Assembly (NCBI GenBank): GCA_002377645.1
Contig: DFQF01000024.1
Location: forward strand, 1 to 8,508
DNA: 8,508 bases
From: Nitrospinaceae bacterium UBA3496
GTDB lineage: Bacteria; UBA8248
Reading direction: 5' to 3'
The notes under the pieces are model-generated. The model was not told the DNA's origin. It was given only the letters and a program-made list of their open reading frames with translations, and searched no databases. The translations under genes and the position numbers were made by a program. Below are positions 1,553 through 7,475 of the stretch, piece after piece (the stretch's first letter is position 1; each line of letters starts with the position of its first letter).

Positions 1553-1843
1553 TTATCTCTTTTTTAAAGACCCTCCATACCCTTCAGAAACCAGAGCATC
1601 TATCATTTTTCTTGCATTAACTTTTTTTTCATTGAATTCGACAATTGCTTCTTTAAGTTGAAAAGATACACGTGCCTTTTTCACTCCATCGAGTTCTTCC
1701 AGAACTCTTTTAACCCTTACAGGTCACGATGAAGGTCAGGTCATACCAGTAATATTTAAAATGATTTCAGCTGCAAAAAGAGAAACACTCATTGCCAAAG
1801 TAACAAAAATAAAAGTGAGATAAAACGAAATTCTCTTCATCAT
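1553..1843 (-). CDS. Candidate double-selenocysteine heavy-metal-associated (MerP-like) periplasmic protein
   Basis: This gene appears only if two in-frame TGA codons (1736-1738 and 1724-1726) are read through. The result is a 96-residue protein. Residues 1-25 are a signal peptide (MMKR, hydrophobic core, cleavage after FAA). The mature ~71 residues form one HMA domain, the length of MerP: strand (EIILNITGMT), metal loop, helix (VRVKRVLEEL), DGVKKARVSF, AIVEFNEKKV, helix (ARKMIDALV), SEGYGG. The metal motif reads GMT-U36-P-S-S-U40-P, with UGA where cysteine is expected. The stop is TAA. Start is ATG 1841-1843 (a second ATG follows); AAAGGA lies about 11 bases upstream. A SECIS-like hairpin follows at 1691-1707. 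It lies 62 bases after the sugar isomerase on the same strand. By family analogy it would bind soft metals (Hg, Cu) or do thiol/selenol redox in the periplasm; that role is inference. The alternative is a pseudogene with two nonsense codons, less likely because no other damage is seen. Confidence 0.8.
1691..1707 (-). promoter_or_regulatory. Candidate bacterial SECIS hairpin
   Basis: On the minus strand GAGTTC-TGGAA-GAACTC is a perfect 6-bp stem with a 5-base loop carrying GG. The loop begins 22 bases after the second TGA (1724-1726) and 34 bases after the first (1736-1738). Bacterial SECIS elements lie inside the coding region just after the UGA, with a small apical loop that has a G in its first two positions about 16-37 bases downstream, where SelB binds. 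Both UGAs fall within that range. The stem codes for part of helix 1 of the HMA domain, so some of the pairing could be chance. Confidence 0.6.
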
Positions 1844-7398: not shown

Positions 7399-7475
7399 TG
7401 GTGGGCAGCGTGGGAATCGAACCCACAACCTACGGATTAAGAGTCCGTTGCTCTGCCTGGTTGAGCTAGCTGCCC
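7399..7475 (-). tRNA. tRNA-Lys (anticodon CUU)
   Basis: A complete cloverleaf on the minus strand: acceptor stem GGGCAGC/GCTGCCC, TA at 8-9, D stem GCTC/GAGC, anticodon stem ACGGA/TCCGT with loop CTCTTAA (anticodon CTT at 7439-7441, Lys codon AAG), variable loop AGGTT, T stem GTGGG/CCCAC with loop TTCGATT, discriminator A and encoded CCA (7399-7401). It starts 26 bases after the stop of the radical SAM gene on the same strand, so they could share a transcript. Confidence 0.97.

What the first reader, a model, noticed from the sequence alone, without database searches (positions are those of the whole stretch)
1553..1843. Hidden gene: MerP-like metal-binding protein with two UGA-encoded selenocysteines
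The gap between dacA and the sugar isomerase is coding on the minus strand if two TGAs are read through. The frame gives a signal peptide, the whole HMA domain and a TAA stop. Both TGAs fall in the GMTCxxC cysteine motif, and no other stop, frameshift or lost segment is seen. Random decay would not place its only two stops there. Exported HMA proteins with two Sec in one metal site would be rare. UGA-containing mercuric-transport-like proteins have, to my memory, been predicted in surveys, but I cannot say whether this form is described.
Basis: partly seen in the sequence, partly recalled or inferred. Interest (0 to 1): 0.93.

Follow-up and report, generated by a model that had tools for sequence, protein, structure and literature searches.

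The report
Two-selenocysteine MerP-like metal-binding protein
A gene that ordinary gene-finding misses likely makes an exported metal-binding protein in which both metal-gripping cysteines are predicted to be selenocysteine, set in a loop one residue longer than usual; the same two-UGA loop lies in bacteria of several distant phyla, in some of them beside mercury-transport genes.

Summary
The finding holds, with one correction. Window 1843-1553 (minus) is open except for TGAs at residues 36 and 40, and reads as a leader plus a MerP-like HMA domain. The genome has selA, selB, tRNA-Sec and selD. Close relatives keep both positions; distant homologues have Cys at both. A covarying hairpin lies 3' of the second UGA.

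Correction: the motif is U-x-x-x-U, not the CxxC spacing. A DNA pattern scan found the same two-UGA loop in 20 HMA frames from 18 isolates of five phylum-level groups. None of 12 UxxxU proteins scanned reaches the cut-off of the catalogued UxxU family NF041115. In the nearest stand-alone relative the gene sits in a mer-like cluster whose glutaredoxin and MerT also carry a UGA.

Best reading: a periplasmic soft-metal carrier, most likely for mercury, with two selenolate ligands. No experiment supports this. In the window's own genome no MerT, P-type ATPase or second HMA protein was found. New variant of a known kind.

The parts
1553..1843 (-). Gene for the predicted 96-residue double-selenocysteine HMA protein, stop codon included
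   Evidence: Open frame except for two TGAs; HMA PF00403 38.0 bits, cut-off 24.8; full-length relatives P0002-P0006 at 81-86% identity
1855..1859 (-). Possible ribosome-binding site AAGGA, 11 bases before the ATG
   Evidence: Read by eye from the sequence; not tested
1772..1843 (-). Predicted signal peptide (about residues 1-24)
   Evidence: By eye: K/R then a hydrophobic stretch and an AxA-like end; no signal-peptide program was available. The model has low confidence over residues 1-20
1736..1738 (-). First in-frame UGA (residue 36)
   Evidence: W or Cys at the aligned place in relatives
1724..1726 (-). Second in-frame UGA (residue 40)
   Evidence: W or Cys at the aligned place in relatives
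1691..1707 (-). Candidate SECIS hairpin GAGUUCU-GGA-AGAACUC; loop at +38 from the first UGA and +26 from the second
   Evidence: lower energy than synonymous versions, z -2.66, p 0.007; 5 of 7 pairs with kept two-sided changes in 14 genes
1711..1726 (-). Short stem that begins with the second UGA (UGACCU-GUAA-GGGUUA)
   Evidence: weak evidence, because the search pattern itself fixed TGACC and GT
1684..1734 (-). Closing helix around both stems (arms 1734-1728 and 1690-1684)
   Evidence: Fold of the window RNA; a similar helix one base out of register in L023; not in the consensus fold of 14 genes

Best explanation
Window 1843-1553 (minus) is a gene predicted to encode an exported 96-residue HMA (MerP-like) protein in which two in-frame UGA codons are likely read as selenocysteine, so that a U-x-x-x-U pair would bind a soft metal ion, most likely mercury(II), in the periplasm. 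Shown: the frame, the two UGAs on the ligand positions, Cys at both positions in homologues, selA/selB/selC/selD in the genome, and a hairpin 3' of the UGAs that covaries between lineages. Predicted by model: a MerP-like fold. Inferred: SelB with Sec-tRNA decodes both UGAs with the help of one hairpin, seen at offsets +38 and +26; a signal peptide takes the protein across the inner membrane; two selenolates hold Hg(II) or another soft ion; the ion is handed to MerT where MerT exists. In the window's own genome no MerT was found, so there the protein would capture the ion or pass it to an unknown partner.
For: Frame and motif. Sec set in the same genome, with a TGA in SelD's own GGUGSKI site. 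Close relatives keep both positions and a 47% identical gene in another genus has 2 TGA at the same places. 20 of 34 pattern hits in genome contigs read on as HMA domains. selB over its cut-off in 19 of 22 UxxxU genome handles against 3 of 14 genomes of the non-HMA hits. CxxxC homologues. Local hairpin: mean z -1.91 in 23 UxxxU genes, -0.42 in 63 Cys HMA genes, p 1.0e-6; covariation. Model closest to MerP 1osd. Mer-type context: MerT, glutaredoxin, CopZ-N and MerR-type genes around the G001 relative; MerT-HMA fusions.
Against: No experiment. Folding over 75 bases does not separate UxxxU genes from Cys HMA genes (p 0.24); the 20-base test was chosen after seeing the folds. One of 22 UxxxU genome handles (G200, Elusimicrobia) shows no selB. 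The window's genome has no MerT, P-type ATPase, CopZ-N or other HMA match, and the gene's own neighbours say nothing about metals. In Planctomycetota some relatives lie by CusB-type or thioredoxin genes instead, so the ion may be copper or silver, or the pair may be redox-active. The assembly is 91.6% complete with 5.5% contamination.
Confidence: 0.66

Rival explanations
1. The same double-Sec protein serves copper(I) or silver(I) and not mercury, as a periplasmic chaperone.
For: CopZ-type models match nearly as well as MerP; CusB-type genes follow L102 and L104, and an RND pump gene lies upstream of L104; the MerR-type regulator by L111 is closest to CueR.
Against: The nearest stand-alone relative lies between MerT and CopZ-N, with a regulator closest to MerR; MerT fusions in L068, L076, L084 and L111; no copper ATPase in the window's genome.
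Confidence: 0.2
2. The Sec pair is a diselenide/selenol redox couple, and the HMA domain is a scaffold for a redox relay and not for metal.
For: In L079 and L099 the frame runs on into a thioredoxin domain, a Thioredox_DsbH gene overlaps the end of L098, and a glutaredoxin with UAPC lies in the G001 cluster.
Against: The Sec sit on the metal-ligand positions of HMA; the MerT, CopZ-N and MerR-type neighbours are metal genes. A reductase partner may only keep the selenols reduced.
Confidence: 0.1
3. A decayed MerP gene whose two Cys codons became stops.
For: Two in-frame stops, and no metal partner gene found in the genome.
Against: Both stops are TGA and lie on the two ligand positions only; close relatives keep the frame; the same double UGA recurs in five phylum-level groups, mostly in selB genomes.
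Confidence: 0.03
4. UGA is read as tryptophan, as the database proteins P0002-P0007 and P0009 print it.
For: W stands at both places in those records.
Against: Full Sec set in the genome; Cys and not Trp in homologues called without read-through; W is what a table-4 gene call would print (inference). A window gene that ends in TGA is weak evidence, since frames were defined to end there.
Confidence: 0.01

Closest known systems
NF041115 UxxU_metal_bind, metal-binding (seleno)protein ('putative mercuric reductase' of PMC13188914 and PMC9312934)
   Same: HMA domain with two predicted Sec; best NCBIfam match of the window protein (67.4 bits)
   Different: Two residues between the Sec by its name and by the reviews, three here; none of 12 UxxxU proteins scanned reaches its cut-off of 95 (35.6-85.5 bits). 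The UxxU control L026, cut at 84 residues, scored 81.2, also below it, so the score alone does not separate the two kinds; the spacing does
MerP (TIGR02052), periplasmic mercury-binding protein
   Same: Leader plus one HMA domain, match over residues 2-95 (61.8 bits); best solved structure match 1osd
   Different: Below the cut-off of 92.55; Sec for Cys; loop one residue longer
'Mercuric transport protein MerP' selenoprotein of the GOS survey (PMC2398784, table passage)
   Same: A MerP with UGA in marine metagenomes; may be this very family
   Different: Two sequences, no motif given; its dataset could not be opened, so the spacing is unknown
NF045683 MerT_CopZ_Se, MerT/CopZ fusion-like heavy metal transport selenoprotein
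   Same: Same domain combination with Sec as in L068, L076, L084, L111
   Different: Those four score 30.9-60.8 against a cut-off of 375; the window protein has no MerT part

Membership tests
Bacterial selenoprotein | In-frame UGA aligned with Cys in homologues | tested here: met
   Both UGAs align with Cys in P0010, P0016, P0044, P0011, P0012, P0019, P0060
Bacterial selenoprotein | selA, selB, tRNA-Sec, selD in the genome | tested here: met
   567.6, 401.9, 76.2 and 337.9 bits, each over its cut-off
Bacterial selenoprotein | SECIS hairpin just 3' of the UGA | tested here: met
   Local hairpin and covariation, post hoc; the 75-base test was negative
Bacterial selenoprotein | Selenium in the product | not testable with these tools
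   Needs 75Se labelling or mass spectrometry
NF041115 UxxU metal-binding selenoprotein | Score over the curated cut-off of 95 | tested here: not met
   67.4 bits
NF041115 UxxU metal-binding selenoprotein | Two residues between the two Sec | tested here: not met
   Three residues, PSS
MerP (TIGR02052) | Score over the curated cut-off of 92.55 | tested here: not met
   61.8 bits
MerP (TIGR02052) | HMA fold with an N-terminal signal peptide | tested here: inconclusive
   HMA over its Pfam cut-off and MerP-like model; the signal peptide was judged by eye only
MerP (TIGR02052) | Gene beside merT or merA | tested here: not met
   Not in the window, and no MerT match in the genome; met in the relative G001
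MerP (TIGR02052) | Binds Hg(II) | not testable with these tools
   Needs an experiment

The most novel reading that the evidence does not exclude
A selenium-based mercury-handling line: bacteria of five phylum-level groups carry HMA proteins whose metal grip is two selenocysteines in a loop widened by one residue (U-x-x-x-U), and in one relative of the window organism neighbouring proteins of the same cluster (glutaredoxin UAPC, MerT with CU, HMA UPFGU) carry Sec as well. The two UGAs are decoded either by one hairpin read at two distances (+38 and +26) or, in many Planctomycetota, by two hairpins, which makes the family a natural test of how SelB picks its UGA.
Probability: 0.45. Interest if true: 0.8.

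Novelty: new variant of a known kind. Interest (0 to 1): 0.66.

Why it matters
Double-Sec metal sites are rare (recalled), and no paper describing a U-x-x-x-U HMA loop came up in the library searches. Of 112 new database hits (P0010-P0121), 57 begin just after the place of the second UGA and lack the metal site; one, P0032, was traced to a two-UGA gene (L112), and several are named 'copper chaperone CopZ', so public annotation likely cuts this family in half. If the reading is right, it gives a soft-metal carrier with selenolate ligands to set against MerP, and a small system for asking how one or two hairpins serve two UGAs twelve bases apart.

Tried and rejected
Whole-region folding as the SECIS test: no difference between UxxxU and Cys HMA genes. 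The 20-base local test was chosen after seeing the folds, and the split into two hairpin classes was made after seeing the folds; both are post hoc. Pseudogene and UGA=Trp readings were rejected (see rivals). Rfam found only a tRNA in the window. Viral contigs: 5 stretches matched a peptide pattern and none encoded a relative; 0 matches to the DNA pattern. A planctomycete-wide draw gave 5 of 294 genomes with the strict pattern, all five already found. A tree of 82 HMA rows is poorly resolved: 25 of 25 UxxxU and 6 of 7 CxxxC rows fall in one 46-row group (91/84) with 14 CxxC rows and the UxxU row; CxxxC P0010 is sister to UxxxU L102 (100/84); UxxxU needs 9 changes on it, so a single origin is not shown. 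Alignment A4 held one row (L092) in a wrong frame through my coordinates; it was not used further.

Full report
What is in the sequence. On the minus strand, window 1843-1553 is one frame of 96 codons and a TAA stop, interrupted only by TGA at residues 36 and 40. The other five frames of the stretch hold 2 to 10 stops each. Read with TGA as U it gives a hydrophobic leader and an HMA domain (PF00403, 38.0 bits, cut-off 24.8). The motif is ITGMT-U-PSS-U-PVRV. The one printed alignment to a PDB chain has a one-residue gap there in each of six domains. Against NF041115, 10 of 12 UxxxU proteins scanned span one residue more than model positions and two (L111, L103) span equal numbers; the UxxU gene L026 spans 67 for 67.

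Is it conserved. Eight database proteins match at E 2.1e-29 or better. P0002-P0006 are full length, 81-86% identical; P0007 and P0008 are shorter, and P0009 departs from the family after about residue 72. Seven print W at both places and P0008 prints W then C; W is what a table-4 gene call would print for TGA (inference). In another genus of the same family, genome G001 has a 47% identical frame with 2 TGA, GMFUPFGUP. In the same phylum G005 has two genes with GMTUPFTUP and G014 one with GMSUPFTUP; one of the G005 genes and the G014 gene are fused to a MerT-like part. Of 18 genomes of the phylum, the two-TGA form was listed in four: G000, G001, G005 and G014.

Wider spread. The pattern GGNATGWBNTGACCN7TGACCN7GT over genome contigs gave 34 stretches. 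Read in frame and judged by eye, 20 go on as HMA domains (L079, L081, L084-L088, L092, L096, L098-L100, L102-L104, L106, L109-L112) and 14 do not. The 20 come from 18 isolates, since L079/L099 and L088/L109 share one each. By record title they are Planctomycetota, Nitrospinota, Armatimonadaceae, Elusimicrobia and Methylomirabilis.

Sec machinery. In the window's genome selA, selB, tRNA-Sec and selD are over their cut-offs, and the SelD frame has its TGA in GGUGSKI. I gave 22 handles for UxxxU genomes (G014 and G198 being one assembly; L099 and L109 left out as repeats) and 14 for the non-HMA hits. selB is over the cut-off in 19 of 22. G193 and G196 have selB pieces that begin at contig ends, below the cut-off; G200 (Elusimicrobia) has none. 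Of the 14, 3 are over the cut-off (G214, G217, G224).

RNA. The window RNA folds into a short stem that begins with the second UGA, a hairpin GAGUUCU-GGA-AGAACUC and a closing helix (z -2.6 to -2.9 against dinucleotide shuffles). Over 75 bases the energy against synonymous-codon versions is no lower in 23 UxxxU genes than in 63 Cys HMA genes (mean z -0.87 and -0.68, p 0.24). For the best 20-base hairpin it is lower: mean z -1.91 with 15 of 23 under -1.5, against -0.42 with 12 of 63 (p 1.0e-6). I chose that test after looking at the folds. In 13 of the 14 genes that I put in class A the loop of the best hairpin lies at +37 or +38 from the first UGA (L084: +21); in the 9 planctomycete genes of class B it lies at +28/+29 (6) or +50 (3). 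Four planctomycete genes (L081, L084, L110, L111) are in class A. For class A, with two helices given, the covariation score is 0.358, reached by 0 of 500 shuffles; 6 pairs changed on both sides (5/500), of them 5 of 7 in the hairpin; further pair types are not unusual (153/500); every slid version scores lower. The UGA stem is partly fixed by the search pattern. For class B, two hairpins have 2 of 7 and 4 of 8 such pairs; score 0.322, 0 of 500. That tool warns that related sequences can exceed its shuffles. One hairpin would serve both UGAs in class A (+38 and +26); class B has one hairpin for each UGA (inference).

Cys forms and missed genes. A profile search with ten UxxxU proteins gave 150 proteins at E <= 0.001, 120 listed. 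Cys forms with the same three-residue gap are P0010 (GMTCDKGCPP), P0016 and P0044 by script, and P0011, P0012, P0019, P0045 and P0060 by eye. P0013 prints W at both places. Of the 112 new proteins P0010-P0121, 57 begin 2-8 residues before the AL of helix 1 with no Cys near the start. P0032 is, after its first residue, the tail of L112, whose contig has the same length (26,734). I infer that most of the 57 are truncated calls of UGA-containing genes; a few (P0104, P0111, P0115) resemble the UxxU gene L026 instead.

Structure. The model, made with Cys for Sec from 16 sequences, has E24-32 H40-50 E54-60 E65-71 H77-86 E90-93, mean pLDDT 82.6. The best solved match is oxidised MerP 1osd, E 3.4e-7, TM-score 0.94 by target length.

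Context. In the window the neighbours are a Peptidase_S11 and an epimerase-like TIM barrel. In G001 the + strand of L023 holds in order a glutaredoxin with UAPC (PF00462 56.7 bits; a later TGA is probably its stop), a MerT with SACUIGP (PF02411 41.3 bits, cut-off 32.9, 1 TGA), the HMA with UPFGU, CopZ_Nterm_CC (112.4, cut-off 100) and a MerR-type regulator (best model MerR, 139.8, below its cut-off of 150.85). MerR-type genes lie beside the domain in L084, L096 and L111 (142.6 and 127.0 for MerR, 115.1 for CueR in L111, all below cut-off). In the 18 genomes of the phylum CopZ_Nterm_CC was found in three, G001, G005 and G014, each time on the contig of the UxxxU gene; it was not found in G000. 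In Planctomycetota, CusB/HlyD-type genes follow L102 and L104, L079 and L099 run on into a thioredoxin domain, and beside L098 (Methylomirabilis) lies a Thioredox_DsbH gene. The window's genome has no match to MerT, P-type ATPase or CopZ-N and one HMA match only, this one; it is 91.6% complete.

What is known. PMC13188914 (passages read) lists 'Metal-binding protein (putative mercuric reductase), NF041115, UxxU, 2 Sec' and a MerT-family selenoprotein; PMC9312934 (passages) lists the UxxU one as well; PMC2398784 (passages) lists MerP as a selenoprotein with two sequences and no motif. A search for 'UxxxU' returned one mathematics paper. Searches with MerP, mercuric transport, MerT, HMA and organometal terms brought no description of this loop (listings and abstract starts, beyond the passages named). 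The library lacks most subscription papers, so absence from print is not shown.

Verdict. A real, conserved gene, very likely a double selenoprotein (about 0.93 in my estimate); a soft-metal carrier likely, mercury the best guess. It is a new spacing variant of a catalogued kind.

Noticed in passing
L023 474-728 and 1079-1465 (G001): A glutaredoxin with UAPC and a MerT with SACUIGP, each with an in-frame TGA at a Cys position, upstream of the two-UGA HMA gene: a cluster with three predicted selenoproteins.
   Followed up: partly
G004:C1:973-1278, G012:C134:7078-7371, G014:C247:10040-10339: Further MerT-like frames with 2 TGA each in the same phylum.
   Followed up: no
L086 near 6381; L099 5963-6048: A second two-UGA motif (UVGUP) in a second HMA-like domain of the same frame, so four UGAs in one gene if all are read.
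   Followed up: no
L017 (G000:C31:29303-30262): SelD of the window's genome has a TGA in its GGUGSKI site.
   Followed up: partly
L026 (G090:C46) and L049 (G049:C163): A UxxU (GMVUGAUP) and a UxxC (GMSUPFC) HMA frame in other families.
   Followed up: partly
window 7402-7475 (-): tRNA gene by Rfam (71.9 bits) between the PrpF-like and KamA-like genes.
   Followed up: no
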